Assembly: GCA_011089965.1 (NCBI GenBank)
Contig: JAANAU010000025.1
Span: forward strand, 1 to 53,782
Direction: 5' to 3'
Length of the DNA stretch: 53,782 nt
Origin: Magnetococcales bacterium
GTDB lineage: Bacteria > Pseudomonadota > Magnetococcia > Magnetococcales > Magnetaquicoccaceae
Below, piece after piece: positions 24,431 to 53,077 of this stretch. The notes beneath the pieces were generated by a model that worked only from the letters and a program-made list of their open reading frames with translations, did no database searches and was not told the DNA's origin. The position numbers and the translations under genes are program-made. How positions within the stretch are numbered: the stretch's first letter is position 1; each line of letters starts with the position of its first letter.

Positions 24431-24487
24431 ATCCAATTATTGAAAAAAAAGAGGGGGTCTGGGGGATTCATCCCCCAGTGTTTTAAT
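24431..24487 (-). repeat. Palindromic repeat element, copy E (after nirJ, inverted)
   Basis: On the minus strand it matches copy D, including the 20-bp palindrome (24459-24478), the GACCCCC stretch, the T8 run and CAATAATTGGAT. An A+T-rich tract (24488-24545) follows, mirroring the tract before copy D. As an RNA hairpin it could terminate transcription. Confidence 0.9.
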
Positions 24488-24540
24488 GTTTTCATGGTTT
24501 AAAAAAATAATTTATAAATATTTTTTATTTAAAAAATAAC

Positions 24541-24645: not shown

Positions 24646-24716
24646 CTTTTTCCCTCATAGTTGTGGGCTGTCGCTTGCACTTGCATTTGCACGTTTATCC
24701 CTCGCAATGATGGAAC

Positions 24717-34840: not shown

Positions 34841-37800
34841 ATGTGGCGTCATGTGGTTATGCTGGCAGGGGTTGTGGTTTGCATGGTGGCTGCTCCGTTG
34901 CTGGCCAACTCCAAGAGTCCGCGTTTCAGCCACTATACGGTGGACACTGGTCACGCTCCAACCCAGACCTGCCTGCATTTCTCAAGGCCTCTGGATGCCA
35001 GGAAGCCGGAATCCTATCGGGATTATTTCAAGATCACTCCCGAGGTGAAGCCCGCCTTGCGGGTCGATGGTCCCAGGCTGTGTCTGTCAGGTCTGGCCTT
35101 TGCCACACCCTATCGGATCACTCTGCTGAAAGGTCTTCCCGATGGGGAAGGCGGACGCAGCGTGGATGAAACTCAGGTCACGGTCGATCTGGGAGATCGT
35201 CAGCCCCGCATCGGTTTTACCGGCAATGGGGCGTTCATTCTGCCGCGTCGTGTGGTTGGCACCATTGGTTTGGAGTCGATCAATGTGGAACAGGCCTGGA
35301 TCACCATTCATCGTTTGGGGGATCGGATGGTGGCCCCGGATCTGCGGGATCCGGTGCGGTTGACCCGGTCGCAGATTCCACCCGACCAGTTGCACAAACT
35401 GCTGCGGCGCCATATGACACCGATCTGGTCTGGCACCATCCAGACGCGCAAGGAGCACAATCAGAAGGTCCATACCACCTTTGCCTTTGCCGACGTGGTG
35501 AAAAACCGGCAACCCGGAGTGTATCTGGTGACAGCCCAGGATGCACGCCGTCCCAAACGTCTGACCCTGCATGAGTCGCCAGACAACACGGCCGGGGATG
35601 ACGGGGAGGACCGTTTTGATTGGGAGATGTATGACAATATCGCCGTGCAATGGGTGGTGGATACCGATCTGGGCGTGTCGGCCCTGCAAGGACGGGATGG
35701 ATTGCATCTGTTTGTCCGTTCTTTGGCGAATGGTACACCGGTGAGCGGGGCCACCGTGACCCTGATGGCGGTCAATAACGAGGAGTTGGCCCGTTTGACC
35801 ACGGATGCCCATGGAGGTGTGCGTTTTGATCCGGGTCTGCTGCGTGGTGGAGGCGGTCTGGCCCCGGCAGCTGTTTTGGCTTACGGCCATCAAGGGGATT
35901 TCACCGTAATGGATCTGAAGCGTCCGGCTTTTGACCTGTCGGACCGTGGGGTGGGGGGACGGAGCCATCCGGGAGAGCTGGATGGTTATCTCTATACGGA
36001 TCGGGGCATCTATCGACCGGGTGAGACGGTCCATCTGGCTGCCTTGTTGCGGGATGCGGCGGTGATCAGCCGTGCCGGACAGCCGTTGCAGTTTGTGATC
36101 CGACGTCCCAATGGCAGCGAGTTTCAGCAGAAGAGGGCAGAACCTGCCGGAGATGGGGCGTATCTGTTGGATGTGACCTTGCCGACCACCGCAGCGCGCG
36201 GCCTGTGGCAGGTGGTCGCACACCTGCCTGGTGCTTCCCAGCCCGTGGGACAGGTGGCGTTTGATGTGCAGGATTTCGTACCTCAGCGGCTCAAGGTCTT
36301 GGCCTCGATGCACGAGCAGAGGTTGTCACCTGCGGATCCGGTGGTGGTGGATGTGGATGCGGTGTTCCTTTACGGGGCACCGGCCAGCGGTCTCAGGGGC
36401 GAGGGGGAGTTGGCGGTCAAGAGCGATCCCGTGCCGTTTGCCGATTTCAAAGAGTACGGCTTTGGCAAGCCGGTCACGGATCCGGCCCCGATTCGTCTGA
36501 TGGTTCCGGATACCGATGCCAAAGGCCATACCACGGCCACGGGTCTGCTGCCGGATGGGCCAGCCGGGAATCCGCGCAAGGCCGAGATCACGGTGCGGGT
36601 GGTGGAGCCGGGAGGACGTGCAACCACGACCGTTGTGGAAAAACCGATTCTGGCCAGTCAGCCTCTGGTTGGGATTCGTCCGTTGTTCCGGGAGGATCGG
36701 GTGTCGGAAGGGGAGGAGGCCCGTTTTCATGTGCTTCTGGTGGCACCGGATGGCACGGCCCTGGAACGTCCGGAGTTGCACTATCGGTTGCTGGAGGAGC
36801 AGACCGACCATCAATGGTACTTCCAGAATCAAACCTGGAAGATGCAGGTGATGCGACGGGATCATCTGGTGCAAGAGGGGGTGGTGCCGGTGGGGGCTGG
36901 CCAGCCGGGTCAGATCGCTGCCCAGGGTTTGGGATGGGGACGATTTCGTCTGGAGGTGCGTGATCCCGGGGGCGGGAGCGAATCACTGCGACGTTTTCAG
37001 GTGGGCTGGGGCGGTCATGACAATACCGATGTGCCGGACAAGGCCGAGGTGCGCAGCGACAAACCGTTCTATCAACCGGGCGAGACGGCCCGCATTCAGA
37101 TTCAGACCCCGGCCCCGGGACCGCTGCAAGTGGTCGTGGCCACGGATCGGGTCTGGGAGAGCCGTTCGTTGCAGGTGGAGGGGAACAAAGGGGTGACGGT
37201 CGAGATTCCGGTCAAGAAAGAGTGGGGGGCTGGTGCCTATGTTTTGGTCACCTCTTTTCGACCTTTGGGCAGGGGCAAGGCGCGGGATCCGGTGCGTGCC
37301 GTGGGTTTGACCTGGTTGGGGATCGATCCGGGCCAGCACGCCTTGCAGGTGGCCATGGAGTTGCCGGAGAAGATCCAGCCGGGGAGACTGACGATTCCGG
37401 TGGCCGTGCAGGGGGCGGACAGTGAAAAGATCTTTCTCACCCTGGCCGCAGTGGATGAGGGGATTTTGCAACTGACCCGTTTCAAGAGTCCGGATCCTTT
37501 GGGGCATTACATGGGCAAGCGCCGGTTGGCGGTCGAGGTGCGGGATGATTACGGACGTCTGCTGGATGGCGGTCAGGGTGTGGCGGGTGAGATCCGTTCC
37601 GGTGGGGATGGTCCGGGTGGTGCTCTGCCGGTCGTGCCGACCAAAAGTACCGCGCTTTTTTCCGGATTGGTGGCCCTGGATGAACGCGGTCAGGCCACGG
37701 TCCATCTGGATGTGCCGAGTTTCAATGGCAAACTGCGATTGATGGCCGTGGCCCATAGTCGCAGCCGGGTGGGTGCGGCAGAAGGATTGGTCACGGTGCG

Positions 37801-39709
37801 TCATCCGGTGGTGGGCGAGGTCTCTTTGCCGCGTTTTCTGGCCCCGGATGATCAGGGGCGTTTGACCTTGCTGGTGCAGAACATGGATCTGCCTTCTGGC
37901 GAGGTGCGGGTCCGTTTGACCGCTGCCGGGGCCTTGTCCCTTCCGGATGGGTATTACAAGAGTGTCACCATGGCACCCGAGGATCGTCTGATCGAGACCG
38001 TGCCGGTGGTTGCCGGGAGTCAGGCCGGGATTGGTACGGTGACTTTGTCGTTGTCTGCTGGCGACTATACGGAAGAGCGGGAGTGGTCGATAGCGGTACG
38101 CGCCCCCCATCGACCGGTGACCACCGAAGAGACGGCGGTGCAGAAACCGGATGAGAGCTGGACCCTGCCTGCTGCCCGGTGGGCGGATCGTCAGGCCGAG
38201 GGGTTGCGTGTCCAGCTTCATTACGGGGTGCGCAAGGAGTTGGATCCGGCGGGTTTGCTGAACTCCTTGGATCGCTATCCCTTTGGTTGTACCGAACAGT
38301 TGACCAGTCGCGCCATGGCTTTGCTCCATTTCGGGGAGGTGATGCCGAAAAAAGGCGAAGATCCGGCAACCATGCGGGATCGGGCGGTCATTCAGGGAGT
38401 TGTCAACCAGATCCTGGAACGTCAGGATGCCGAAGGAGGGGTGGGATTGTATCGCGCCGGGGATGGATGGTTGGATCATTATCTGGCTGCTTTTGTGATG
38501 GACCTGTTGCAGCAGGCTGCGGATCAGGGGTTTTTTGTCCCAGAGGTGGCGCTGGAGTCGGGTTATCGATGGTTGCGGGAGTTGTCTTCCCATTACCAGC
38601 AGAGTCGTTATGAAAAAAGACGCCACTCCACCTATTTGCTGTATGTGTTGGCCCGTCGTGGCAAGGTGGATCTCGGAGAGTTGCGTTATCTGCATGACAA
38701 TCGCCTGGGAGAGTTGCCAGGACAGGATCGGGCATTTCTGGGTGCTGCCCTGTATCGCCTGGGTGATGTGGCGCGGGCCGTACATGCCCTGGAACAGGCG
38801 GTAGCGGTCATGGAGAGCGCGCAGAATGCACCCTATCCCTATTTTCAGTCCCGTTTGCAGGAGTGGGCAGCCATTCTCGCCCTGGCCCTGGAGAGCAAAC
38901 AGGAAAAACAGGTGGCCGCTGCCCTGAAAGGGATTTCCCAGCAGATCGAACCTGCCGAGCGGCTCAATACCCAGGAGAAGGCATGGTTGTTGCGCGCAGC
39001 CGCTTTGCTTGCCGGCAGCGAACCGTTGCGGGTCGCTCACAATGGTCAAGAGGATGGACGTGTCGGACGGGGTGTGCTTTCCTGGGTGATCGATGCGCCT
39101 GGTGCGCGTGTCGAGCAGTTTGTCAATCGGACCCAACGGGATCTCTGGCGTACCCTGACCATTACCGGGGTTCCGCTGCGTGCTTTGCCCGCCGAAAGCC
39201 ATGAGGTGACGATCCTGCGTACTCTGTTCTCTTTGTCCGGCCAGCCTCTGGATCCCGGGCAGTTGCGTCAGAATGACCGGTTCATCGTCTCTTTGACCGG
39301 AAAGCTGCTCAAACCCATGCACCGTCATCTGGTTCTGTCTGACCTGTTGCCAGCGGGTTGGGAGATCGAAGGGGTGATCAAAGGGAATGATGAGGGGGAG
39401 TCGGTCTATCCGTTTCTGCCACGCATGACAGAACTGGCCATGCGTGAAGCGCGTGATGACCGTCTGGTGGCGGCATTTGATGTCCACCCAGCGCAGACGA
39501 ACAAGCCGGGGTCTCCACCGGCAAAAGAGGGAACCGCTCAAAAGTCGGGTTCCCACCCTTTGGAACCCAATGCCTTTCATGTGGCATATGTGGTGCGGGC
39601 GGTTACGCCGGGTCGGTTTGTCCTGCCGCCGCCGTTGGTTGAAGACATGTACCGATCCACGGTGTTTGCCCGTGGTGCCACGGGTCAGACTGTGGTGCAT
39701 GTCCCATAA
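34841..39709 (+). CDS. Bacterial alpha-2-macroglobulin (YfhM type, thioester-containing)
   Basis: 1622 residues, close to E. coli YfhM (1653). An N-terminal signal peptide lacks a lipobox cysteine, so it is probably soluble or anchored by the uncleaved helix. MG-type beta domains are followed by the macroglobulin core (YLYTDRGIYRPGETVHLAALLRD) and the thioester motif CTEQ at Cys1150 (YPFGCTEQLTSRAMALL). Next is an alpha/alpha toroid and a C-terminal receptor-like domain. These proteins trap proteases in the periplasm. AAGGAGAT precedes the ATG. The stop overlaps pbpC by 11 bp, reproducing the known yfhM-pbpC pairing. Confidence 0.95.
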   Translation: MWRHVVMLAGVVVCMVAAPLLANSKSPRFSHYTVDTGHAPTQTCLHFSRPLDARKPESYRDYFKITPEVKPALRVDGPRLCLSGLAFATPYRITLLKGLPDGEGGRSVDETQVTVDLGDRQPRIGFTGNGAFILPRRVVGTIGLESINVEQAWITIHRLGDRMVAPDLRDPVRLTRSQIPPDQLHKLLRRHMTPIWSGTIQTRKEHNQKVHTTFAFADVVKNRQPGVYLVTAQDARRPKRLTLHESPDNTAGDDGEDRFDWEMYDNIAVQWVVDTDLGVSALQGRDGLHLFVRSLANGTPVSGATVTLMAVNNEELARLTTDAHGGVRFDPGLLRGGGGLAPAAVLAYGHQGDFTVMDLKRPAFDLSDRGVGGRSHPGELDGYLYTDRGIYRPGETVHLAALLRDAAVISRAGQPLQFVIRRPNGSEFQQKRAEPAGDGAYLLDVTLPTTAARGLWQVVAHLPGASQPVGQVAFDVQDFVPQRLKVLASMHEQRLSPADPVVVDVDAVFLYGAPASGLRGEGELAVKSDPVPFADFKEYGFGKPVTDPAPIRLMVPDTDAKGHTTATGLLPDGPAGNPRKAEITVRVVEPGGRATTTVVEKPILASQPLVGIRPLFREDRVSEGEEARFHVLLVAPDGTALERPELHYRLLEEQTDHQWYFQNQTWKMQVMRRDHLVQEGVVPVGAGQPGQIAAQGLGWGRFRLEVRDPGGGSESLRRFQVGWGGHDNTDVPDKAEVRSDKPFYQPGETARIQIQTPAPGPLQVVVATDRVWESRSLQVEGNKGVTVEIPVKKEWGAGAYVLVTSFRPLGRGKARDPVRAVGLTWLGIDPGQHALQVAMELPEKIQPGRLTIPVAVQGADSEKIFLTLAAVDEGILQLTRFKSPDPLGHYMGKRRLAVEVRDDYGRLLDGGQGVAGEIRSGGDGPGGALPVVPTKSTALFSGLVALDERGQATVHLDVPSFNGKLRLMAVAHSRSRVGAAEGLVTVRHPVVGEVSLPRFLAPDDQGRLTLLVQNMDLPSGEVRVRLTAAGALSLPDGYYKSVTMAPEDRLIETVPVVAGSQAGIGTVTLSLSAGDYTEEREWSIAVRAPHRPVTTEETAVQKPDESWTLPAARWADRQAEGLRVQLHYGVRKELDPAGLLNSLDRYPFGCTEQLTSRAMALLHFGEVMPKKGEDPATMRDRAVIQGVVNQILERQDAEGGVGLYRAGDGWLDHYLAAFVMDLLQQAADQGFFVPEVALESGYRWLRELSSHYQQSRYEKRRHSTYLLYVLARRGKVDLGELRYLHDNRLGELPGQDRAFLGAALYRLGDVARAVHALEQAVAVMESAQNAPYPYFQSRLQEWAAILALALESKQEKQVAAALKGISQQIEPAERLNTQEKAWLLRAAALLAGSEPLRVAHNGQEDGRVGRGVLSWVIDAPGARVEQFVNRTQRDLWRTLTITGVPLRALPAESHEVTILRTLFSLSGQPLDPGQLRQNDRFIVSLTGKLLKPMHRHLVLSDLLPAGWEIEGVIKGNDEGESVYPFLPRMTELAMREARDDRLVAAFDVHPAQTNKPGSPPAKEGTAQKSGSHPLEPNAFHVAYVVRAVTPGRFVLPPPLVEDMYRSTVFARGATGQTVVHVP

Positions 39710-41804
39710 CCGTCCGGCTGGCTGGAAGCGCCGCTCCTGTTGGATGTTGGTGGCTCTGGTGCTGGGAGTGGCCGGATTGTGGCTGCTGGACCGGCTGTTC
39801 CCACCCGACCTCAGCCGTTATCTGGACCGCTCCCGTCTGGTGACCGATGCGCGCGGGGAGTTGCTGCGACCGTTTTTGTCGCGCGATCACAAGTGGCGGC
39901 TGCATACCCGGCCTGACGATGTGGATCCGGGCTATCTGGCCATGTTGCTGGCCTATGAGGATGGGCGTTATGCCCGGCATGTCGGGATCGACCCATTGGC
40001 CCTGATGCGGGCTGCGTGGCAATGGATTCAGGCGGGAAGACCGGTTTCCGGGGGATCGACTCTGACCATGCAGGTGGCCCGGTTGCTGGAACCCCGTTCC
40101 CGCACCCTGGGTGCCAAACTGGTGGAGTTGTGGCGCGCCTTGCAACTGGAGTGGCGTTTTGACAAACAGGAGATCCTCTCCATCTATCTGACTCTGGCCC
40201 CGATGGGCGGTAATCTGGAGGGGGTGCGTGCCGCCTCTCTGGCCTACTGGGGCCGTGAACCGCATCAACTCACTTTGGGTCAGGCCGCACTGCTGACTGC
40301 GCTGCCTCAATCCCCGGCAGCACGGCGTCCGGATCGTCACCCGCAAGCTGCTGCTTTGGGGGTGGCGCGGGTTCTGGAACGCATGGTGCGCAAAGGGGTG
40401 ATCTCTTTGGCCAGGTCTGCCGAAGCGGCTCAGGAACCCATCCCCCGGACACGCATTCCGCTGCCTTTTGTGGCTCCGCACCTCAGTTGGCGTCTGATTC
40501 GTCAGGAACCGCCGGGCGCTGTGGTGCGTACCACGGTGCATGCCCCGTTGCAACGCGCTTTGGAGGCTTTGGTGCGTCGTCAGGTTGACCGCTTCGACGA
40601 TGGCGCTACCGCGGCGTTCCTGGTTGTGGAGAACAGTGGACGGGCGGTGCGGGCGTATCTCTCCGGTCACTCTTTTCAGGCCCGGGCAGGTCAGGTCGAT
40701 CTGGTGCGGGCGCTGCGTTCTCCGGGTTCGGCGCTGAAACCGTTTTTGTACGGTCTGGCCATGGACGATTTGGCCATTCATCCGGAGACCATCCTGGAAG
40801 ACCGTCCATTGCGTTATGGTGGTTATGTCCCGCGCAATTTCGATACCGGGCATGCGGGCGCAGTCACTGCCCGTCAGGCGTTGCGGGATTCCCTCAATCT
40901 GCCGGCCATTGCCTTGGCGGATCGGGTGGGGCCGCTGCGTTTTGCCGGATTGCTGACCCGGGGAGGTGCCCGTCTGGTCTTTCCGAAGTCGGATCTCTCT
41001 CCCGGGTTGGCCGTGGCCCTGGGAGGGGTGGGCATCACACTGGAAGATCTGGCCACCCTGTATGTGGCACTGGCCAATGGCGGTGAGGCGGGTAGGCTCC
41101 GCATGCGGTTGGATGAACCGGTGGCATCTGCACCGCAGCCTTTTTTGTCTGCCGGGAGCAGCTGGCATCTGACGCGCATTCTGGCCGGGGCAGCCCGTCC
41201 TGATCTGTTCAGTCAGCAATCCGGAGGAACGGGACGAGGTGTGATCGCCTATAAGACCGGCACTTCGTATGGTTATCGGGATGCCTGGGCATTTGGTTAT
41301 TCCGATCAGTATACGGTCGGGGTGTGGGTGGGGCGTGCGGATGGTTCAGCCCGGCCCGGTCATTATGGTCGCAATACGGCTGCCCCTCTGTTGTTCCAGA
41401 TCTTCGATCTGTTGCCGGAATCCGCCGATCCACGTCTGCGTCCACCGCCGGACGGGATTCTGTTGGCAGACACCAACGATCAACTCCCCGAGGGGTTGCG
41501 TCGGTTCCGACCGGCAGACTCCACCCTGGCAGCGGTCATGCCAGTCCGTGGCGATCCGCCGCGCATTCTGTTCCCGCCGGATGGTTCCGGGTTGGAACTG
41601 TCACCCGGTGAGGCCGTGACCTTGCTGGCCGAAGGGGGATCCCCGCCGCTCTCCTGGTTGGTGAATGGCATGCCCCTGGCGCAACCGCGCTGGTTTCCGG
41701 ACGGGATGGGTTTCAATCGTCTGGTGGTGGTGGACCGTTTGGGCCGTCAGGATGTGGCTGTGGTGCGGGTGCGACAGGATCTGGTGGTTGGAAGTCCTGA
41801 ATAG
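39699..41804 (+). CDS. pbpC: Penicillin-binding protein 1C (PbpC)
   Basis: 701 residues. One N-terminal membrane helix precedes a glycosyltransferase 51 domain (catalytic Glu87 in YEDGRYARHVG, GGSTLTMQVARLL). The transpeptidase domain follows, with Ser344-x2-Lys347 (PGSALKPF), SLN (RDSLNLPAI) and Lys519-Thr-Gly. A C-terminal PBP1C-specific beta domain begins at RILFPPDGSG. It links peptidoglycan synthesis to periplasmic repair; pairing with alpha-2-macroglobulin is proposed to defend against cell-wall breach. The start overlaps the preceding gene, and the 3' end faces the TPR gene with a 9-bp gap. Confidence 0.95.
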   Translation: MSHNRPAGWKRRSCWMLVALVLGVAGLWLLDRLFPPDLSRYLDRSRLVTDARGELLRPFLSRDHKWRLHTRPDDVDPGYLAMLLAYEDGRYARHVGIDPLALMRAAWQWIQAGRPVSGGSTLTMQVARLLEPRSRTLGAKLVELWRALQLEWRFDKQEILSIYLTLAPMGGNLEGVRAASLAYWGREPHQLTLGQAALLTALPQSPAARRPDRHPQAAALGVARVLERMVRKGVISLARSAEAAQEPIPRTRIPLPFVAPHLSWRLIRQEPPGAVVRTTVHAPLQRALEALVRRQVDRFDDGATAAFLVVENSGRAVRAYLSGHSFQARAGQVDLVRALRSPGSALKPFLYGLAMDDLAIHPETILEDRPLRYGGYVPRNFDTGHAGAVTARQALRDSLNLPAIALADRVGPLRFAGLLTRGGARLVFPKSDLSPGLAVALGGVGITLEDLATLYVALANGGEAGRLRMRLDEPVASAPQPFLSAGSSWHLTRILAGAARPDLFSQQSGGTGRGVIAYKTGTSYGYRDAWAFGYSDQYTVGVWVGRADGSARPGHYGRNTAAPLLFQIFDLLPESADPRLRPPPDGILLADTNDQLPEGLRRFRPADSTLAAVMPVRGDPPRILFPPDGSGLELSPGEAVTLLAEGGSPPLSWLVNGMPLAQPRWFPDGMGFNRLVVVDRLGRQDVAVVRVRQDLVVGSPE

Positions 41805-41813: not shown

Positions 41814-44420
41814 TCATGGGTTTGTGCGTGAGGGGAGGTTGGCATCGTTCGGATCGGCCTGGATGGCGCGATGGTACAGCTCTTCTGCCTGGTCATAATC
41901 CTGGCGGATGTTCTGCATGAAAAGAGCAAAATTGCCGAGGTTGTTGGCATGGTTGGGATCGGCCTGGATGGCGCGGCGGTACAGTTTTTCTGCCTGGTCA
42001 TAATCCTGGCGGACGTTTTGCATGAAAAGAGCAAAGTTGCCGAGGTGGTTGGCATGGTTGGGATCGGCCTGGATGGCGCGGCGGTACAGCTCTTCCGCCA
42101 GATCATAATCCTGGCGGACGTTCTGCATGAAAAGAGCAAAATTGCCGAGGTGGTTGGCATGGTTGGGATCGGCCTGGAGTGCGCGGCGGTACAGCTCTTC
42201 CGCCTGATCATGATCCTGGCGGACGTTCTCCATGAAAACAGCAAAATTGCCGAGGTGGTTGGCATGGTTGGGATCGGCCTGGAGTGCGCGGCGGTACAGC
42301 TCTTCCGCCAGATCATAATCCTGGCGGACGTTCTGCATGAAAAGAGCAAAATTGCCGAGAACATGAGCATTTTTGTCATCAAGCGCCATAGCCTTGCGAT
42401 AGGCGGCTTCGGCCTCTTCATACCGTTTCAGATGGTGACAAAGCAGGTTGCCCCAAGAATTCATCACATAGGAATCGTCAGGCAATTGTTCCACAGCACG
42501 ACGCAGGAAGGGTTCGGTGCTTGCACCCAACCGGGGTTGGTGATCTAATATCCAAGCTGCCAGGATGAAACAACGCCTGCCATCCAACTGTGACAGCTGT
42601 TGCATCAGAAGATGCATGATCGCCTCAATTTGGCCTGCTTCTGGTGCCGACTCTTTGCGCACGATCTGGAACTGCATCCATGGATCCTCTCCAGCCAAAA
42701 CCTTTGCCTGCTCCACGATCTGCCTGTTCCATGCCGGGTCGCGGGGATCCATCCGATTCAACAGCTCATCCAGAGCGTTCTGCGGGATACTCTCCAGTTT
42801 TTGTGCGCGCGCCATGGCCTCCCAGGCACGGGTCTTCTGGCCCAACTCCCCTTTGAGATCCTGTGCCAGACGCCACCAATAGTCTGGATGCGACTCCCAG
42901 GCCGAAAACAGGGAGATCCCCTCCAGAGGCCACAAAAGAAAACGGCGCATTCCCTCACCAGCAGGGGTGACCAGCAGATCTGCCCACTCCATCTGATGTT
43001 TGTAAAGCTGTTGATGAAGGTCATTCTGTTGATGGTCTGGCAGACTGGAAAGCTTTTGTCGCTCTTCATTGAAGACATCCGTCAACTGCTGAATCTGGGT
43101 TGTACTGCGCTGTGACAAAGAGGAGAGCATTGCCTGCTTTTCCTGCCTGGAGAGCGCGATGGAGCCGGAGAGTCCATCGAGAAAAGATTCCAACACTTCT
43201 GACCTCAGATCGGAACGCCCGTTCTTCAGCTGATGGAGGCGTTGAGAAACTTCCGGGGTGCATTTTCCACTCTGCGTCAGAGGCCAATACCATTTGGGAA
43301 GTTGCATGATGGCATGGCAATCGCTCCTTTCAACAGGGGTCGCGTAACCCTTCCATATGCTCTCCTGATCTGTTCCGGCCCCCTGTTTCCCGATGCTCAG
43401 GGTGGCAGCGCCAGCGCGCACCAGTTTGTCCTTTACCTGTTCGATCTGGCTGTCAACCGGCGTCTCTTGCAGAAAATCGGCAATCTCCACCACACTCCGA
43501 CTGTACGGATGGTCAAGACTGACCGTCGTCAAAGGCAGATCCGAAACCGCCAGACGCGGGGTGTAGGGCAGGGTGAAGATTTTCGGTCCATCTTCCTGCT
43601 GCATGTTGTTTCTGGGGGGCTTCCGGTGGGCATGGACGATATTCCGACCCTGCTCCAGCACAGCCAACGACTCAGGATCATCGTGAATATGCACCGGAAC
43701 CGGTGAGAAGACCACCACCACATCACGGGCAAAATACCCTTCCGGAACCCGCTCTGCACGCAATTTGCCAAGCGTGAGGTCCAAACCGACCAGATTCTGT
43801 CCATTCAACCCGGAGACCAGGACCATGCGATCTGCCAGATAGCCCAACACCAGATCCAGCAACTCCGGAAAGCCGGTCCGACAGTCGATGAGCAGGTAAT
43901 CCAACCCCCGACCTGCCTGGGGATGACCTGATGGCAGACGGAAAGCCCGCATGTCCCGTTTCAGCAGAGAGGCAAAGGCCCGCAAGGCACGATCATCAGG
44001 GCTTTCGACAGGAGTGCGACCCTTTTTCCCAGGAAAGGCAACTTCAATCGTGGTTGCGGGAGGATAGCGGAAATGGACGTTTCCGGCAGGCATGACCAGA
44101 ATCACCCCACCATTGCCCCACTGAGCCTGCGGTGCGCGCATTTCGTAAAAAAGCCCGGCAGGCGGAAAATAACCCAGACGGTCATCCTCATCCCGACCGA
44201 AATAATAAGCTGCCAGCAAATCGCTGAATCCCCGACCCTGCATTTCTGGATCCAGGGGGGTTGGTGACAGTAAAGGTGAAAAACTCAACCCAGGGGCAGC
44301 CAGGTCCATATCCACCAACCCGACCACCTGCCCCACAGATGCCCAATAGGCCGCCAGATTGGTCAACAGCGCCGTACGTCCAACACCACCTTTGAATGAA
44401 AAGAAAGCCAGTATCTGCAT
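41814..44420 (-). CDS. KGGVGR-motif ATPase fused to TPR repeats
   Basis: 868 residues. Residues 1-~330 are a ParA/MinD-like ATPase with deviant Walker A FKGGVGRTALLTNLA (the P-loop Lys is Arg15), the A' motif VDMDLAAPGLSF and DYLLIDCRTGFPE. A helical linker region follows, and residues ~640-860 are TPRs, the last five almost identical 35-residue units (LGNFALFMQNVRQDYD ... AEELYRRA). KGGVGR ATPases with repeats often stand in conflict or signalling loci. It is third of three same-strand genes; the two upstream are uncharacterised. The start ATG at 44420 is 18 bp after its neighbour. Function is inferred only. Confidence 0.88.
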   Translation of the reverse strand: MQILAFFSFKGGVGRTALLTNLAAYWASVGQVVGLVDMDLAAPGLSFSPLLSPTPLDPEMQGRGFSDLLAAYYFGRDEDDRLGYFPPAGLFYEMRAPQAQWGNGGVILVMPAGNVHFRYPPATTIEVAFPGKKGRTPVESPDDRALRAFASLLKRDMRAFRLPSGHPQAGRGLDYLLIDCRTGFPELLDLVLGYLADRMVLVSGLNGQNLVGLDLTLGKLRAERVPEGYFARDVVVVFSPVPVHIHDDPESLAVLEQGRNIVHAHRKPPRNNMQQEDGPKIFTLPYTPRLAVSDLPLTTVSLDHPYSRSVVEIADFLQETPVDSQIEQVKDKLVRAGAATLSIGKQGAGTDQESIWKGYATPVERSDCHAIMQLPKWYWPLTQSGKCTPEVSQRLHQLKNGRSDLRSEVLESFLDGLSGSIALSRQEKQAMLSSLSQRSTTQIQQLTDVFNEERQKLSSLPDHQQNDLHQQLYKHQMEWADLLVTPAGEGMRRFLLWPLEGISLFSAWESHPDYWWRLAQDLKGELGQKTRAWEAMARAQKLESIPQNALDELLNRMDPRDPAWNRQIVEQAKVLAGEDPWMQFQIVRKESAPEAGQIEAIMHLLMQQLSQLDGRRCFILAAWILDHQPRLGASTEPFLRRAVEQLPDDSYVMNSWGNLLCHHLKRYEEAEAAYRKAMALDDKNAHVLGNFALFMQNVRQDYDLAEELYRRALQADPNHANHLGNFAVFMENVRQDHDQAEELYRRALQADPNHANHLGNFALFMQNVRQDYDLAEELYRRAIQADPNHANHLGNFALFMQNVRQDYDQAEKLYRRAIQADPNHANNLGNFALFMQNIRQDYDQAEELYHRAIQADPNDANLPSRTNP
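41851..42375 (-). repeat. Five near-identical 105-bp tandem repeats encoding TPRs
   Basis: The anchor GGATCGGCCT recurs at 41851, 41956, 42061, 42166 and 42271, exactly 105 bp (35 codons) apart, with only scattered base differences between units. Upstream TPRs are clearly diverged. The homogeneity indicates recent duplication or gene conversion. Confidence 0.93.
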
Positions 44421-44438
44421 GGAAGCGTTGCCTGGTTG

Positions 44439-45338
44439 TTAATGAGAAAACGATTCGTGGCTTGCCCTTTTCACATCAAAACCATGAGGAAGAGAGAAAC
44501 CTTGTATTAATAATCTATTGTTCTGTATTATTGGAGAAACAGTAATAACCGTATCTCTATGCATTCTGTGATGAGTGCTGCTCCTTTTGAATAAAGAAGC
44601 TTGAGTTTGCCAGTTTTCTGCACGGATGCGCGCATCCCGGGCATACTGTTCAAAGGTGATGTCTGGATAATCCGACTGCACCTGAAGATCATACGTCAAA
44701 CGCAATCGGTAGAACTCGTTCGGCATCAATACCAGGACTGCTGCGATGATTTGATGAAACTCCAAATAATAATCGCGCCCTTCTGTAAAATCAGGATCAA
44801 CACACATGGCGCCGCAGCGTGCCCATCTTTCCACTGCTGGCAAAAACCCATTGACCAGTTCCGCAGGATCTGACGGAAGCTCTGATGGTATTTTCACTGC
44901 CAGTTCTTCCAGAAGTTTAGCCGCCGCATGACGTTGCAAGGTTTGCAAGCGGGAAAAAGGACCAAAGACCGTCCAATGTTGTCCACCTTGCATGCCATGT
45001 GGTGTCAAATCTTCCCAGGGAAACCCTTCTCGACAAACTTCCTGATAGGATTCCAGAAACTCCTTGCTGACACAAAATGCCATATCCGAACCCATGACAG
45101 TCGCTTGTGCATGACTGTCCAACAGATGAATCAATTGCTCACTGGCATACTGCTGCAAGGTTGGCAAGGTGATCGGATTTTTCAATCCTCTTTTCGGGTC
45201 CAGCAGCCAAACCGGTTCTGCACTCAAACGCTTGCGAACAACAATCCAGGTGATGGTGCATAGATCCGTCGGGCTGCCATTGATGGCAACCGCATCCAGT
45301 TGCTCTGCACTCGGGATCATGGTTGACGTGTCAGCCAT
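44439..45338 (-). CDS. Uncharacterised protein, middle gene of the KGGVGR cassette
   Basis: About 299 residues with no signal peptide or membrane helix. It is mixed alpha/beta in appearance, with a central helix-rich part (LLEELAVKIPSELPSDPAELVNGFLPAVERWARCGAMCVDP) and a conserved-looking WVFGPF-like patch (HWTVFGPFSRLQTLQRHAAAKLL). I do not recognise the family. ATG at 45338 is inside the end of the upstream gene, so the two are coupled; a TTG four codons earlier is an alternative. The KGGVGR ATPase begins 18 bp later. It may be the adaptor or effector handled by the ATPase, which is inference from position. Confidence 0.8.
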   Translation of the reverse strand: MADTSTMIPSAEQLDAVAINGSPTDLCTITWIVVRKRLSAEPVWLLDPKRGLKNPITLPTLQQYASEQLIHLLDSHAQATVMGSDMAFCVSKEFLESYQEVCREGFPWEDLTPHGMQGGQHWTVFGPFSRLQTLQRHAAAKLLEELAVKIPSELPSDPAELVNGFLPAVERWARCGAMCVDPDFTEGRDYYLEFHQIIAAVLVLMPNEFYRLRLTYDLQVQSDYPDITFEQYARDARIRAENWQTQASLFKRSSTHHRMHRDTVITVSPIIQNNRLLIQGFSLPHGFDVKRASHESFSH

Positions 45339-46111
45339 TGCCTGGTCCAATCTTTCAATTCCACGACGGCATCATCCTGTTCATGAGTGATGATATTGAA
45401 TATTTTTTTCAATCTTTCAAAATTTCTTGATGCATTGAAGCCCAGTTTCCCGTGTGCGATTTGATTGTTGATACGTTTGAAAACCTGTCGTGACGTAGAC
45501 CAGACCAACAAATCCTCTTTCAGTTCCACAGGCTGTTCAATACGCACCTCCCATATCCATGACAACAAATCCGATTGCTGATGATTCCATGCAAAACGGG
45601 CTGGCAGATTCGGATCCCCCCAGGCTGGTGGAACCAAAAAATTTGGCGGCTGCTGCGCACAATAAGCATTCATGTTGTTGCCAAAATAATCCTTCAAATA
45701 GTCGGCAAACGGTTCCCGCCATTGATCCAAAGGGTATCGATTCTGCTGCAAAAAAAACACGGCTGGATTTTTGGGGTCACTCCCGGCAAGTGCCAGAAAC
45801 GGATCACATTTGCCAGCATACACCCCACCCGAATCGCAGGGTGCCACATGGCCTGCTTTTCCTTGTTCAAAATCCGGCGCGTAAGCAAAGGCGATCTCCC
45901 CATACTGCGGTATCGCGTGTCCCGCATAAAAATAGACACAACGCGACCATCCACACGCCATCTGTACGTCGCGTGGTGTGCGGGAGGCATCGCGGGTCAC
46001 CTGCCATGCACCCGAGCCTTTCAGAATGCTCTCGATTTCCGCGACCCCGGCCACCCGCATCAAGGGAATCGATCTGGCCAGACGTTGATGCTCCGGTTCA
46101 TTCTGCTGCAT
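45317..46111 (-). CDS. Uncharacterised protein, first gene of the KGGVGR cassette
   Basis: 264 residues, soluble. The notable segment is RCVYFYAGHAIPQYGEIAF ... GHVAPCDSGGVYAGK, followed by a Trp-rich stretch (LLSWIWEVRIEQPVELKEDLLVW) and a helical tail. The order Arg, then YGE-strand, then DSGG and a WEVRI strand loosely recalls ADP-ribosyltransferase-like folds, but I cannot support that assignment. ATG at 46111 lies after a 260-bp divergent intergenic region that must hold its promoter. It overlaps the middle gene by 22 bp. Confidence 0.8.
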   Translation of the reverse strand: MQQNEPEHQRLARSIPLMRVAGVAEIESILKGSGAWQVTRDASRTPRDVQMACGWSRCVYFYAGHAIPQYGEIAFAYAPDFEQGKAGHVAPCDSGGVYAGKCDPFLALAGSDPKNPAVFFLQQNRYPLDQWREPFADYLKDYFGNNMNAYCAQQPPNFLVPPAWGDPNLPARFAWNHQQSDLLSWIWEVRIEQPVELKEDLLVWSTSRQVFKRINNQIAHGKLGFNASRNFERLKKIFNIITHEQDDAVVELKDWTRQWLTRQP

Positions 46112-46373: not shown

Positions 46374-47261
46374 ATGAAGATGGCCGACACCGACGATCTG
46401 AAAGAGACCCACGATTATCACCTCACTGTACCCCAACAGGCCGAACCGTTTCCACTCAAAGGGTGTCATGCCCTGGATTGGGGCATGCAGAACCGTCTGT
46501 CCAAAATCTTCTCTCCGGCGACCGGTCGCACGGTGATGCTGGCAGTGGATCATGGATATTTCATGGGACCAACCACCGGGTTGGAACGGATCGATGTCAC
46601 GATCAACCCCTTGTTGAAATTTGCCGACACCTTGATGTGTACCCGGGGCGTGTTGCGAGCTTTGACTCCCGCCACTTTTACCAAAGGGATCTCCCTGCGC
46701 GTCAGCGGCGGACCGAGCATCCTCAAAGAGCTGTCCGACGAACGGATTGCAGTGGACATTGAGGATGCCTTGCGCCTGAATGTCTCGGCCATGGCAGTCC
46801 AGGTCTTTATCGGTGGCGAACATGAAACCCAGTCCGTTCATAACATGACCCGCCTGGTGGATCAGGGGTTGCGCTATGGTCTGCCGGTCCTGGGAGTCAC
46901 TGCCGTGGGCAAGGAGTTGACCCGCGACGCCAAATACATGCGACTGGCCACGCGCATCTGTGCCGAACTGGGCGCAACCTTTGTCAAAACCTATTACGTG
47001 GCCAAAGGATTCGAGACCGTCACAGCCTCCTGCCCAGTGCCGATTGTGATTGCCGGCGGCAAAAAACAGCCCGAAGCCGATGCCTTGACCATGGCCTATC
47101 AGGCCATCCAACAAGGTGCTGCCGGAGTGGACATGGGCCGAAACATCTTTCAGTCCAATGCCCCGGCTGCCATGATCCAGGCCGTGGGCAAGGTGGTGCA
47201 TGAAGGGTTCACCCCGCGTGAGGCGTATGAATTCTATCAAGATCTCAGTTCCGGATCATGA
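46374..47261 (+). CDS. DeoC/FbaB-type aldolase, LsrF-like
   Basis: 295 residues, TIM-barrel class I aldolase family. It carries [24 protein letters not shown] (Schiff-base lysine region) and VIAGGKK, and its length equals LsrF (about 291). LsrF is a thiolase that cleaves the phosphorylated AI-2 product to acetyl-CoA and dihydroxyacetone phosphate; relatives act in other sugar-phosphate pathways. No lsr transporter or kinase is present, so the substrate is uncertain. ATG at 46374 or 46380. The stop overlaps the next gene (ATGA), so aldolase and aldolase/dehydrogenase are coupled. Confidence 0.88.
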
Positions 47262-49339
47262 AAAGTCGCTGGTCAGATGCCGAAGCTGAAGAGTTCGTCC
47301 AACGCTATGGAAGCCGTTGGGGCGAACGGTTGGCCTTGCGCACCTATACCAGCCGTTTGCTGGGCGCTGAAAAAGGGTTGGTCCTCCATGGCGGTGGCAA
47401 CACCTCGGTCAAAGATCAGGGACGCGATCTGCTGGGGCGGGAGTTGCCGGTCATTTTCATCAAGGCCACGGGCTGGGATTTGGCCACCATCGAACCCGAA
47501 GGACACTGCGGCCTGGAACTGGAGCCATTGCGTCCCCTGAGCACCCTGGATGCATTGGATGAGGCCACCATGGTCAATGCCGTATGCATCCGTCGTCTGC
47601 ATGCCGACAGCCCGGCTCCCTCGATTGAAGCACTGTTGCATGTATTCTTGCCCCACACCTTTATCGATCATACCCATGCCGATGCCATTCTGGCGCTGAC
47701 CAATCAGCCGGATGGTGCGACTCTCGTGCGTGCGGCCCTGGGAGAGCGGGTCATCATTCTGCCCTATGTCCATCCCGGCTTTGCCCTGGCCAGGGCCGTG
47801 GCTGTGGCCCATGCCGCCCACCCCGAAGCCAACGGCATGGTGCTGATGCATCACGGCCTGATCACCTGGGGTGAAAGCGCCCGTCAGGCCTATGAAACCA
47901 CCATCGACCTGGTCAACCGGGCCGAAAGCTACATCGCAACCCACTCCCGGGCACCCAAGGCCTTGCGGCGCGTCACCACCATTGCCTCGGCCCGTGAACG
48001 CTATCTGGACGCAGCCCCTGTGATCCGTGGTCGCCTGGCCATCCCGACCGGAGATGCCGATCACCCGTACCAACGTTTCATCCTGTTGCCTGCGATCACC
48101 CGCGAAACCCTCAATCTGGTCGATTCCGAACAGGGACGCACGCTGGCCATCACCCCCCCTCTGACCACGGATCATCTGATCCGGACCAAACATCTGCCGC
48201 TCTGGATCGATGACCATGACGCGATCCCCACTGCCATAGCCGGATATCAGTCTGCCTATCGGGAGCGGTTCGACCGGTTGGCCGATCTGGAAGGGCGTCC
48301 CACGCCGTTCGATCCCTCCCCCAGAGTGATCTTCATGCCGGGAATCGGTGCCATCTGCGCCGGTCGAACCGCTGCCGAGGCGGAAATCACCCGCGATATC
48401 CTGCTGCAAAGTCTGACGGTCAAAAATCAGATCGCAGCCATGAACAGCAGTTATCTGGGACTCGACGACCCGGAACTGTTTGCCATGGAGTATTTTCCCA
48501 GCCAGGTGCGCAAATTGCGCCCGATCTCCGCCCATGCCCTGGCCCGTCAGGTGGCACTGGTCACCGGAGCGGCAGGGGCCATCGGTGCCGGGATCTGCCG
48601 GGAGCTTTTGGCCCAGGGGTGTCATGTGGCCGCTGCCGATCTGCCCGGTGCCGGACTCGACAGTCTGGCTGAGGAGTTCAACCGTCACCATCCGGGTCAA
48701 CTGCTGCCTGTGGCCATGGACGTGACCCAACCCGAGTCGGTCACTGCCGGTTTTGCTCTGGTCGTGGAACGTTGGGGCGGCGTGGATATCCTGATTCCGA
48801 ATGCGGGTCTGGCCCATGTGGCGGGCCTGGATACCCTCAAACTGGCAGCATTCCAAAAAATCCACAAGGTCAACGTGGAAGGGACGCTGCTGGTGTTGGC
48901 CGAGTCGGCGCGCCTGTTCAAACGTCAGGGGACTGGCGGGGATGTGGTGTTGATTTCGACCAAAAATGTCTTTGCTCCCGGTGCCCGGTTTGGTGCCTAC
49001 AGCGCCACCAAAGCCGCAGCTCACCAGTTGGCGCGCATTGCTTCCCTGGAGTTGGCCGAGTTCGGGGTGCGGGTCAACATGGTGGCCCCGGACGGGGTGT
49101 TTGCCGATGGTGCCCGTCCCTCTGGATTGTGGGCTGAAGTCGGACCGGATCGTATGCAGGCACGCGGCCTGGATGCCGATGGTTTGCAAGAGTATTACCG
49201 CAACCGCAACCTGTTGAAAGCACGCATCACCGCCCAACATGTGGCCAATGCGGTGCTGTTTTTTGTCACGCGCCAAACCCCGACCACCGGTGCCACCCTG
49301 CCGGTGGACGGCGGTCTGCCCGACGCCACCCCGCGCTGA
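47258..49339 (+). CDS. Bifunctional class II aldolase / short-chain dehydrogenase (RhaD-type fusion)
   Basis: 693 residues. The N-terminal half is a class II aldolase with zinc ligands in HTHAD and MHHGLITWG. The C-terminal ~260 residues are an SDR with [11 protein letters not shown] ([11 protein letters not shown]), a serine region LISTKN and the YSATKAA Tyr/Lys pair, ending [12 protein letters not shown]. The layout is that of the bifunctional rhamnulose-1-phosphate aldolase/lactaldehyde dehydrogenase family. The usual rhamnose genes are absent, so the sugar is open. It starts by overlapping the LsrF-like stop and ends 18 bp before the HA-repeat gene. Confidence 0.9.
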
Positions 49340-49357: not shown

Positions 49358-52300
49358 ATGCTGCCGCGTCATCCCAAGGCAAAATCCTTGATCGAAAACG
49401 GCCTGTTTCAGGATGTCTCCCGTTTTGCCGAGTTGGAATTGCGTATCGCATCCTGTGAGGATCCACAGGATCGTCAGGCAGCCTTTGCCTTGTTTGTCGA
49501 AGGTCTGCTCACCACCCGCGCCATCCACCGTGCCGTGGAGTGTTGGCCCACGGGTCAGATGCCCCTCGATGCCCGTCGTCGCCTGGGCATGCCTGCTCAC
49601 CTGCCCGGTGCAGACGGAGTGTTCCGTTCCCTGGAAGGGGAGATCCATGCCTATCAACTGCTTTTCCGTCCGGAACGGGACAAACCTTTGCCCGGCGAAT
49701 CCGACCGTTTTGCCCCACTGCTGGCTGCCACTTTGCAGCCATTGCTGATCACCAATGCCGACCACCTGACCAATGGATGGAAAAAGCTGAAAGGGGGTCA
49801 TGCGCTGCGCGGGATCGATCTGGATCGTTTGGAGCCGCGCGTTTTTCAGACCATCCGACGCTGGCTGCAAGGGGCTGGAACCATGCTGGAACGGCCAGCC
49901 ATGCCCCCATTTCATGTGCGCACCCTGGAACAACTCCTGACACGCCTGGGGCAGAACGAACCGTTGACATGGCAGCTCTCCCCTGGTGCCGAAACAGAAC
50001 TGCTCACGTTGCGGCTGATTCAGCGTTTGGGCGGACGCCGGGTGGTCGTGGTGGTGTTGGCCAATCTGGAACATCTGGTCTATACACTACGACAATGGCG
50101 GCTGCATGTCGGCTGGGGCGATCTGGCCTTGGTGCAGATGGTGGAAGAGCCGGTCCCATCCATGGAACTGGATTTTCCCGTCACCACCCATCCGGAAGGG
50201 GTGCGACGTTTTCTTGCCTGGCATCACACCGGGGCACGGGTGATCCTGGTCACGGCACACCAGATTCCGTTGCTGGCGCGCGCCTTGATGGGATTTCCCA
50301 TGGTCGACCTGGTGGTCAGCTTTGCACCTCCGGCTGGCACCACCCTGCCTGCTGCCAAACAGCTTGTGTGGCAAAGCGGGAGTGTCAAGCGTGTCCGTGG
50401 CGAGGAGGTCGAATCCGTGGCAGTCTTGCCTCTGCCCCGCTCCTGGAAGCTTTTGTTGATGCCCGTGTCCGGCAACCGCACCGACAATCCGTTGTCGATC
50501 TTGCTGGCTGGAATCGCCAGGCTTGCAGAGATCCGTCATGTGCATGCCTATCTGCCAGCCGTTGAACCGAATCCAGGGGATCCACCCGAATTCGAGTGGT
50601 TTCAGATCGACAAGGAGGCCAAAAGCCTGGAACTGGAACGGGTTCGGTTGGCTTTTCAACGGGCACGACGGGCGGTGTGGGTGCATACTCTGCCGGTTGT
50701 CGCAGGACGTTGGTTGGCACCGGCGGATGTGGCGCTGTTTCTGACGCTCCCGGATGGAGCCGGATTGAGTCAGGCACTGGAGGCGATATTGGCAGCCAGT
50801 CATTCCACCGGCGCAGGCTGTCTGATGGTGCCGGTCTGGGTCAAGGATGGCCTGGTGGTGGATGCCAGCCTGATGTGGGATCTTTTGCGCAGAATGCGCG
50901 GGTTGGATCCCGCTTTTCATGCGCATGTGCGTGCTGCCATGGAGCAGTTGGGACGGGATGGACAATGCAATCCGGAACCGCTGTTGGCCCGGATTCAATG
51001 GGTGACTGATGCGGATCAACCGCCGAGCTGGTCCCGGGATGCGCTGTTTCCCGAACTCTTGCAACAGCTCGGAGACGTTTGGGATCAACGCTTTGGTGCC
51101 TTGTTGGCCTACCAGGCAACCCATGGGGATACGGCTGTACCGCTCCAGTGGCCGGACAACCCGGAACTGGCCGAATGGGCGGCGCGGCAACGTTTGGCCA
51201 AAATGCGCGGCACTTTGGATGCGGAACAACAGGCCCGCCTGGAGAAGATCGACTTTGTCTGGAATTTGGAGCAACACGCCTGGGAAATGGCCTTTTACCG
51301 TTTGCAGCGATTTGTGGAACATCATGGCCATGCTCGGGTTCAAGACCCCTGCCAGGAAGATGTCGCCCTGGGGGAGTGGTGTGTGCGACAACGCCAGCTC
51401 AAGAAAAAAGCGAAACTCTCCTCAGAGCTGGAACAACGCCTGGAGGGAGTCGGATTCATTTGGGATCTGGAAGAGTATGCCTGGGAAGAGTCGTATCAGC
51501 TTTTCTTGCGGTTCAAGGGGTTGCGTGGTCACGGCAAAATTCCCAGTTATTGTCCCGAAGATCCTCTGCTGGCCAAATGGGCAGACAAACAGCGCAAAGA
51601 AAAAGAGTTGAAAAAATTGCCTTCTGAACGGATCAAGCGTCTGGATGCCGAGGGGTTTGTCTGGGATCTGGCGGCTGCGGCCTGGGACGAGATGTGCGAG
51701 GTGTTGCGTCAACACTGGCTGAAATATGGACATGGCAAGGTGCCCAAAGAGTGGCCGGAAAATCCCACCTTGGCCATCTGGTCTGAAGAGCAGCGCCGGC
51801 TGCGTGCCAAGGGTGGACTGACGGATGAGCGCATCGCCCGCCTGGAGGCATTGGATTTTGTCTGGGATTTGAAAAAGGCACGCTGGGAAGAGGGATGGCA
51901 ACTGTTTCAGGAGTTTCGTATCCAGAATGGCCATGGGCGCATTCCCGATCCCTGTCCAGACTCCTGGCAGCTCGATCAGTGGGCGCGGGAGATGCGACGT
52001 GCCTGGCGTTTGGGGCAGCTGGATCCCAAAATCCAGGCCCGTATGACCGAAGCCGGTTTTGTCTGGGATCTGGAACAGGCGGTTTGGGAGGATCATTTTC
52101 AGGCGCTTGTCGATTTTCATCAAGAATACGGTCATTTCAATGTGCCCAAAGAGTGGCCGGAGCTGCCGGAGTTGCCGACCTGGGTCAAGACCCAACGTTT
52201 GATGCGGGACAAGGAAAAACTGGATGAGGAGCGATTGACCCGGTTGGTCTCTCTGGGATTTGTGTGGGATGCGCGTGATGCGGCCTGGGAGGAGATGTTT

Positions 52301-53077
52301 CTGGCTCTGACCCGGTTTCAGCAGACGCGCAACCACTGCCTGGTGCCAACCAACTGGGAGAGTGATCCGGCCTTGGCCCGCTGGGTGGAACAACAACGAC
52401 GCGATTATCGCCTGAAACTGTCCAGACCTGAACATGTGCAACGGTTGGAATCTCTGGGATTTGTCTGGGACTCGAAGGCGATTTTCTGGGAAGAGATGTT
52501 TGCTGCCCTCACCGAATATCGGGAGCGACACGGCGATTGTCTGGTGTCGGAAAATGCCACGGAGCAGTCGCAATTGGGTTGGTGGGTGGCTGCACAACGC
52601 AAGGCGCGGCTGGCCGGGCAACTGGAGCCGGAGCGGGTACAGCGGCTGGATGCCATCGGTTTTGTGTGGGATGCCCAGGAGGTGATCTGGATGGAGTCGT
52701 TCCGGGCATTGGAAGCGTTTCATGGTCATCATGGTCATGTTGTCGTGCCCACCGATTGGCCGGAAAACCCCCGTCTGGCCTCCTGGGTCGCCACTCAGCG
52801 CACTGCCCGTCAGAAGGGTCATTTGGGAGAGAAACGCACCGCTTTGTTGGACCATCTGGGCATGGTGTGGGATGGCAAAGAGGCTATTGCAGAAGAGATG
52901 ATGCAGCAGTTGCGCGCCTTTCACGCCCGTTACGGCCACTGCGAGGTTCCGTTGGAAAGTCCAGAGTTTCCGCGTTTGGGATTGTGGTTGCAATTTCAGC
53001 GACAAGCCAAAAGGGATGGCCAACTGGATCCAGTCCGTCTGGCCCGGTTGGAAGAGATCGGAGTGACCTGGAAATGA
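49358..53077 (+). CDS. Catalytically degenerate nuclease-helicase with ten HA (helicase-associated) domains
   Basis: 1239 residues, no stops or frameshifts. Residues 1-~125 resemble the PD-(D/E)XK domain that precedes some SF2 helicases, with Asp86 kept but the QxK motif reading QLLF (100-103). Residues ~200-500 follow a helicase plan with key residues lost: Walker A GTGKT reads GAETE (210-214), the DEAH position reads FAPP (322-325), and motif VI QAxGRxxR reads QALEAILA (472-479). From Trp575 to the end are ten ~67-residue HA domains (consensus WEE-x-F ... GHxxVP-x-WP ... W ... QR ... GFVWD). HA domains are thought to bind nucleic acid. It follows the aldolase fusion by 18 bp. Likely a non-enzymatic DNA/RNA-binding protein. 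Confidence 0.85.
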   Translation: MLPRHPKAKSLIENGLFQDVSRFAELELRIASCEDPQDRQAAFALFVEGLLTTRAIHRAVECWPTGQMPLDARRRLGMPAHLPGADGVFRSLEGEIHAYQLLFRPERDKPLPGESDRFAPLLAATLQPLLITNADHLTNGWKKLKGGHALRGIDLDRLEPRVFQTIRRWLQGAGTMLERPAMPPFHVRTLEQLLTRLGQNEPLTWQLSPGAETELLTLRLIQRLGGRRVVVVVLANLEHLVYTLRQWRLHVGWGDLALVQMVEEPVPSMELDFPVTTHPEGVRRFLAWHHTGARVILVTAHQIPLLARALMGFPMVDLVVSFAPPAGTTLPAAKQLVWQSGSVKRVRGEEVESVAVLPLPRSWKLLLMPVSGNRTDNPLSILLAGIARLAEIRHVHAYLPAVEPNPGDPPEFEWFQIDKEAKSLELERVRLAFQRARRAVWVHTLPVVAGRWLAPADVALFLTLPDGAGLSQALEAILAASHSTGAGCLMVPVWVKDGLVVDASLMWDLLRRMRGLDPAFHAHVRAAMEQLGRDGQCNPEPLLARIQWVTDADQPPSWSRDALFPELLQQLGDVWDQRFGALLAYQATHGDTAVPLQWPDNPELAEWAARQRLAKMRGTLDAEQQARLEKIDFVWNLEQHAWEMAFYRLQRFVEHHGHARVQDPCQEDVALGEWCVRQRQLKKKAKLSSELEQRLEGVGFIWDLEEYAWEESYQLFLRFKGLRGHGKIPSYCPEDPLLAKWADKQRKEKELKKLPSERIKRLDAEGFVWDLAAAAWDEMCEVLRQHWLKYGHGKVPKEWPENPTLAIWSEEQRRLRAKGGLTDERIARLEALDFVWDLKKARWEEGWQLFQEFRIQNGHGRIPDPCPDSWQLDQWAREMRRAWRLGQLDPKIQARMTEAGFVWDLEQAVWEDHFQALVDFHQEYGHFNVPKEWPELPELPTWVKTQRLMRDKEKLDEERLTRLVSLGFVWDARDAAWEEMFLALTRFQQTRNHCLVPTNWESDPALARWVEQQRRDYRLKLSRPEHVQRLESLGFVWDSKAIFWEEMFAALTEYRERHGDCLVSENATEQSQLGWWVAAQRKARLAGQLEPERVQRLDAIGFVWDAQEVIWMESFRALEAFHGHHGHVVVPTDWPENPRLASWVATQRTARQKGHLGEKRTALLDHLGMVWDGKEAIAEEMMQQLRAFHARYGHCEVPLESPEFPRLGLWLQFQRQAKRDGQLDPVRLARLEEIGVTWK

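What the first reader, a model, noticed from the sequence alone, without database searches (positions are those of the whole stretch)
49358..53077. A dead nuclease-helicase that has kept and expanded ten HA domains
The protein can be followed block by block along a PD-(D/E)XK + SF2 helicase + HA plan, yet catalytic positions are replaced: QxK to QLLF, GTGKT to GAETE, DEAH to FAPP, QAxGRxxR to QALEAILA (both arginines are Ala). The 3.7-kb frame is intact, so it is kept for something other than nuclease or ATPase activity. The ten ~67-residue HA domains suggest a long nucleic-acid-binding solenoid. It could be a decoy, regulator or architectural protein derived from a restriction-like enzyme. 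It lies in an operon with two sugar-phosphate aldolase genes, which is unexpected.
Basis: partly seen in the sequence, partly recalled or inferred. Interest (0 to 1): 0.78.

Follow-up and report, generated by a model that had tools for sequence, protein, structure and literature searches.

The report
Dead restriction helicase with ten HA domains
A DNA-cutting motor protein lost every catalytic motif in the ancestor of a whole class of magnet-making bacteria, yet it has been kept under strong selection beside a sugar-aldolase gene with a long tail of repeated helical domains, so it most likely works now as a binding or scaffold protein.

Summary
Confirmed and widened. ORF 49358-53077 (+) encodes 1,239 aa with ten HA domains (PF03457, E 3e-156). 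Residues 1-570 are homologous to the Mrr nuclease plus SF2 translocase of Type ISP / HA-bearing helicases: hhalign probability 100, E 3e-48; AlphaFold2 pLDDT 83; best PDB match LlaBIII, Z 21.8 over 514 residues. This is no private pseudogene. Orthologues occur in 44 of 48 genomes of the class (Magnetococcia); none examined retains GxGK[ST], DEAH or QxxGRxxR, whereas relatives outside the class do. dN/dS is 0.06-0.26. Erosion is graded, with the window's genus among the most eroded. Linkage to the bifunctional aldolase/SDR gene is class-wide (35 loci, usually 7-63 nt apart), and the two proteins' distances correlate at r 0.96. Two points argue against a simple nucleic-acid solenoid: the HA array is net acidic here (-14) and in most families, while nine active relatives are net basic (+3 to +27); and AF2 does not fix how the repeats are placed (pTM 0.47). 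Constraint peaks in HA7-10. Best reading: a domesticated pseudoenzyme acting as a scaffold or regulator tied to the aldolase operon. Identity is near certain; function is inferred.

The parts
46374..47261 (+). LsrF-like class I aldolase/thiolase gene (295 aa), first gene of the conserved operon in most families
   Evidence: NF006081 495 bits against a cut-off of 297; PF01791; found upstream in most families, not detected in f6, f14 or f11
47258..49339 (+). bifunctional class II aldolase / short-chain dehydrogenase gene (693 aa)
   Evidence: NF006194 856 bits against a cut-off of 686; SDR YSATK present, HTHAD present; directly upstream of the HA gene in 35 loci
49358..53077 (+). the finding: pseudo-nuclease-helicase with HA array, 1,239 aa
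49358..49450 (+). N-terminal element, residues 1-31 (LF..l..F.ELE.R pattern), 38% mean identity between families
49451..49852 (+). dead Mrr-type PD-(D/E)XK nuclease domain, residues 32-165
   Evidence: hhalign to active relatives; active relative L021 has PF13156 Mrr_cat_2 there; LlaBIII match from model residue 19
49655..49663 (+). lost nuclease lysine: QLL (100-102) in place of QxK
49880..50392 (+). dead RecA-like lobe 1, residues 175-345
49985..49999 (+). lost motif I: GAETE (210-214) in place of GTGKT
   Evidence: no G.GK[ST] in the class orthologues examined
50321..50332 (+). lost motif II: FAPP (322-325) in place of DEAH
50435..50962 (+). dead RecA-like lobe 2, residues 360-535, the least conserved domain (19%)
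50771..50794 (+). lost motif VI: QALEAILA (472-479) in place of QxxGRxxR
51071..53074 (+). array of ten HA domains, residues 572-1239, three helices each, net charge -14
52274..53074 (+). HA7-HA10, residues 973-1239, the most conserved part of the protein (40-52% between families), largely co-linear across the class

Best explanation
It is an ancient, class-wide pseudoenzyme. A single-chain restriction-type enzyme (Mrr nuclease + SF2 translocase + HA array) was captured next to an aldolase/SDR gene in the ancestor of Magnetococcia, lost nuclease and ATPase chemistry there, and has been inherited vertically since (shown: homology, fold, motif loss, purifying selection, operon conservation). What is kept is binding: the N-terminal element and above all HA7-HA10 carry the constraint, while the RecA lobes drift as a spacer-like core (shown as a conservation gradient; the functional reading is inferred). 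The most likely job is a protein-binding scaffold or regulator acting with the aldolase/SDR (and LsrF-like) enzymes encoded in the same operon, because linkage and co-inheritance with that enzyme are the strongest outside signal and the array has lost the basic character of active HA helicases (inferred). I put identity as a dead Type ISP/HA-helicase relative at about 0.97, and the specific scaffold/regulator-of-the-operon mechanism at the confidence below.
For: hhalign of 30 class N-termini against 11 active relatives: probability 100, E 3.1e-48, 555 columns. AF2 model pLDDT 82.9, pTM 0.76; Foldseek best hits LlaBIII 4xqk E 9e-18 and LlaGI; VIA Z 21.8, 514 residues, model 19-570. An active relative in a Gallionella MAG (L021) has Mrr_cat_2 + ResIII + Helicase_C + 6 HA, the same architecture. 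Motifs absent in all full-length and partial class orthologues examined, present in relatives outside the class. 44 of 48 class genomes have it (HA array in 40; N-terminus alone in 4 more). dN/dS: N-terminal part 0.06-0.26, HA part 0.06-0.20, similar to the aldolase/SDR at 0.09-0.18. Aldolase/SDR directly upstream, same strand, in 35 loci, gap mostly 7-63 nt; distance correlation r 0.957, 0 of 999 permutations; two genomes without the protein also lack a full aldolase/SDR (G025, G041). Conservation: RecA2 19%, RecA1 26%, nuclease 30%, N-term 38%, HA7-10 40-52%. HA array charge -14 here, negative in most families, against +3 to +27 in nine active relatives.
Against: No direct evidence of any partner. 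G024 and G031 carry the aldolase/SDR without the HA protein, and in G012, G034 and apparently G005 the two genes are not adjacent, so the link is not obligatory. The distance correlation mainly shows shared vertical descent and would arise for any two vertically inherited genes. Family f6 has a basic array (+11 to +16). Net charge does not exclude a basic patch. The metabolic role of the aldolase pair is unknown.
Confidence: 0.45

Rival explanations
1. Nucleic-acid-binding regulator or architectural protein: the dead motor no longer moves, but the HA array and RecA lobes still bind DNA or RNA, for example to control its own operon.
For: HA domains accompany DNA translocases; the precedent pseudohelicase D. 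radiodurans PriA keeps DNA binding without ATPase (PMC4504706); conserved W..QR positions in HA.
Against: Array net acidic in the window and most families, net basic in nine active relatives. The RecA lobes, which would grip DNA, are the least conserved part. Motif V/VI arginines are lost.
Confidence: 0.35
2. Decoy or regulator of active restriction enzymes (Type ISP or HA helicases), or of phage proteins.
For: Its ancestor is of the restriction/defence type (PADLOC restriction-enzyme models hit the active relatives), and some class genomes carry an active Type ISP-like enzyme (G035, G001).
Against: Near-universal and vertical in the class, while active relatives are sporadic; tied to metabolic genes rather than a defence island; no PADLOC hit for the protein itself.
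Confidence: 0.08
3. It retains a cryptic or altered enzymatic activity with a re-routed active site.
For: Nuclease fold and one Asp (GAD) kept; domain still folds confidently.
Against: No motif is conserved in place of the lost ones across families. The remaining Asp is itself not universal in the class.
Confidence: 0.05
4. Recent pseudogene or assembly artefact.
For: Motif loss alone would fit.
Against: Open frames in orthologues across the class, dN/dS 0.06-0.26, independent assemblies.
Confidence: 0.01

Closest known systems
Type ISP restriction-modification enzymes LlaBIII (4xqk) and LlaGI (5ffj)
   Same: Same N-terminal order and fold: Mrr-family nuclease then SF2 RecA1-RecA2; best structural match over 514 residues.
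   Different: Catalytic motifs lost; no methyltransferase or target-recognition domain, an HA array instead.
Active Mrr_cat_2 + ResIII/Helicase_C + HA helicases (Gallionella MAG L021; Rhodococcus, Streptomyces, Cupriavidus plasmid proteins)
   Same: Same full architecture, 4-8 HA domains.
   Different: Those keep the motor motifs (one Rhodococcus protein, L187, kept only motif I by strict pattern), have basic HA arrays, are sporadic and often on plasmids, and are not linked to aldolases in the regions seen.
Pseudohelicases: D. radiodurans PriA (PMC4504706), yeast Utp25 (PMC9539457)
   Same: A helicase fold kept after loss of catalytic motifs, with a non-catalytic role.
   Different: Different helicase families; those act in replication restart or ribosome assembly, and nothing of that kind is known here. 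Utp25 was read only as a title and abstract opening.
HA domain PF03457 (NMR structure 2kta)
   Same: Ten copies; HA2 matches 2kta by sequence, E 5e-5.
   Different: No function is established for HA arrays in the papers found.

Membership tests
Type ISP-like Mrr nuclease / SF2 translocase (homology) | Sequence-profile homology over nuclease and both RecA lobes | tested here: met
   hhalign probability 100, E 3.1e-48, 555 columns
Type ISP-like Mrr nuclease / SF2 translocase (homology) | Fold of nuclease + RecA1 + RecA2 | tested here: met
   LlaBIII Z 21.8, rmsd 4.8, 514 aligned, model 19-570
Functional Type ISP enzyme | Motif I GTGKT, motif II DEAH, motif VI QxxGRxxR | tested here: not met
   GAETE, FAPP, QALEAILA; absent across class orthologues
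Functional Type ISP enzyme | Nuclease D...QxK | tested here: not met
   Lys replaced by Leu
Functional Type ISP enzyme | Methyltransferase and target-recognition domains | tested here: not met
   HA array follows directly; no such Pfam hit
HA-domain helicases | HA array C-terminal to helicase | tested here: met
   PF03457 ten stretches, E 2.9e-156
HA-domain helicases | Active SF2 motor | tested here: not met
Pseudohelicase (as D. radiodurans PriA) | Loss of helicase motifs with the gene conserved | tested here: met
Pseudohelicase (as D. radiodurans PriA) | No ATPase or unwinding activity, ligand binding kept | not testable with these tools
   needs purified protein

The most novel reading that the evidence does not exclude
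A restriction translocase was domesticated in the ancestor of a bacterial class into a metabolic scaffold: dead motor plus an acidic HA array that organises or regulates aldolase/SDR enzymes, which would make HA arrays protein-binding modules and give a route from defence enzyme to metabolic organiser.
Probability: 0.25. Interest if true: 0.8.

Novelty: new variant of a known kind. Interest (0 to 1): 0.6.

Why it matters
Restriction motors are usually mobile and short-lived in genomes. Here one seems to have been disarmed and then kept vertically by a whole bacterial class, in an operon with metabolic enzymes. It gives a natural test of what HA domains, which are common and uncharacterised, do when the motor is dead, and a lineage with graded steps of helicase decay, from TATPR still present to all motifs lost.

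Tried and rejected
Pfam, NCBIfam and PADLOC scans see no nuclease or helicase in the protein itself; homology appears only with profiles. Whole-array Foldseek against PDB gave no match at E <= 0.001, so no fold relation is claimed for the array as a whole. A viral scan with the active relative found nothing, and with the HA array one 223-kb contig. Paper searches for HA-domain function and for Magnetococcales genome comparisons mentioning helicases gave nothing specific, and a search for the aldolase pair likewise. The recent-pseudogene idea was rejected on orthologue frames and dN/dS. Pairwise dS is near saturation for some pairs, so only the closer pairs weigh. The charge comparison is confounded by phylogeny: nine active proteins and about ten class families are few independent points.

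Full report
What is there. The ORF at 49358-53077 (+) is open over 1,239 codons. Pfam finds ten HA domains and nothing in residues 1-570. Two genes precede it on the same strand: an LsrF-like thiolase/aldolase and a bifunctional class II aldolase/SDR, the latter ending 18 nt upstream. The genome belongs to Magnetococcales: its nearest relatives in the genome collection are Magnetococcales MAGs.

Is it a dead nuclease-helicase? Yes. A profile of 30 class N-termini (A1) finds Type ISP-like and HA-bearing helicases outside the class, down to E 1.6e-56 or 4.5e-58 when scored on the extracted proteins. Profile against profile it aligns 555 columns with 11 active relatives at E 3.1e-48. AlphaFold2 on the class alignment gives pLDDT 82.9, pTM 0.76, with the Type ISP enzyme LlaBIII as best PDB match in Foldseek (E 9.4e-18) and in VIA-align (Z 21.8, 514 residues).

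How old is the loss? HA arrays were found in 40 of 48 class genomes and the N-terminus alone, often at contig ends, in four more. Outside the class only 4 of 350 sampled genomes of the phylum had HA domains. None of the class orthologues examined has GxGK[ST], DEAH or QxxGRxxR. All the near-full-length relatives outside the class recovered with the profile have these motifs; of six plasmid HA helicases fetched later, all keep motif I, five keep DEAH and QxxGRxxR, and four keep all four motifs by strict pattern. Remnants survive in some class families: TATPR and DAHR in G036, DAHK or EAHR or DSH in others. In a tree of the shared region, class members and active relatives separate with full support, G036 lying nearest the active ones. 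This fits one ancestral loss followed by erosion. It is inference, as no ancestral reconstruction was run.

Is it kept? Pairwise dN/dS is 0.06-0.26 for the N-terminal part and 0.06-0.20 for the HA part, comparable to the aldolase/SDR (some pairs have near-saturated dS). Conservation between families rises from 19% in RecA lobe 2 and 26% in lobe 1 to 30% in the nuclease, 38% in residues 1-31, and 40-52% in HA7-HA10. HA7-10 are largely reciprocal best matches of the last repeats in other families, so these repeats have individual identities.

Context. The aldolase/SDR gene lies directly upstream on the same strand in 35 loci, usually 7-63 nt away, with a few larger gaps. Genes further out are not conserved. 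The LsrF-like gene is upstream in most families but not f6, f14 or f11. Pairwise distances of the two proteins correlate at r 0.957 over 26 genomes, which shows shared vertical inheritance. Exceptions: G012 and G034 have the two genes apart, G005 shows no aldolase/SDR in 4.7 kb upstream, G024 and G031 have the aldolase/SDR but no HA protein, and G025 and G041 lack both. The aldolase/SDR family is widespread outside the class without HA neighbours in the short flanks seen.

What does the HA array do? AlphaFold2 gives ten confident three-helix units (pLDDT 88.5) but low confidence in how they are arranged (pTM 0.47); neither a rigid solenoid nor beads on a string is established. The array from HA1 on has net charge -14 here, -17 to -24 in f13 and negative in most families, but +11 to +16 in f6. 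In nine active relatives it is +3 to +27. This is the main reason to prefer a protein partner over nucleic acid. It is a coarse measure and the points are not independent.

Mechanism. Shown: dead motor, retained fold, purifying selection, class-wide vertical retention, conserved operon. Inferred: that binding is the retained activity and that HA7-10 is its seat. More weakly inferred: that the partner is an enzyme of the same operon. The rival of a nucleic-acid-binding regulator remains nearly as likely.

Known or new? The families are known (Type ISP-like motors, HA domain, pseudohelicases). A class-wide pseudo-restriction motor in an aldolase operon was not found in the papers searched, though the library holds only open-licence papers. 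I rate it a new variant of a known kind.

Noticed in passing
window 41814-46111 (-): Three adjacent minus-strand ORFs: a KGGVGR-type ATPase fused to nearly identical TPR repeats (868 aa), plus 303-aa and 264-aa proteins with no family hit. Possibly one system; the TPR copies look recently duplicated.
   Followed up: partly
window 16060-26225 (+): Two cytochrome cd1 (Cytochrom_D1) proteins with a siroheme decarboxylase NirDL-like protein and a radical SAM protein between them, a heme d1 / denitrification set.
   Followed up: no
window 34841-41804 (+): Bacterial alpha-2-macroglobulin gene followed by a penicillin-binding protein with BiPBP_C domain, the familiar A2M/PBP1C pair.
   Followed up: no
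L185 6001-7458: A 223-kb IMG/VR contig encodes an HA-like repeat stretch distantly related to the array (25% identity).
   Followed up: no
L119 / G018:C107: In G018 the aldolase/SDR homologue is split over two frames and its HA protein has only four HA domains, possibly a start of decay or a sequencing error.
   Followed up: no
plasmids collection: Active HA-bearing helicases are common on plasmids, especially Streptomyces, Pseudomonas and Rhodococcus (797 records with a match to L021).
   Followed up: partly
L187 2492-5557: A Rhodococcus plasmid HA helicase keeps motif I but has no strict DEAH, TATPR or QxxGRxxR pattern; it could be a second, independent case of decay or just variant motifs.
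   Followed up: no
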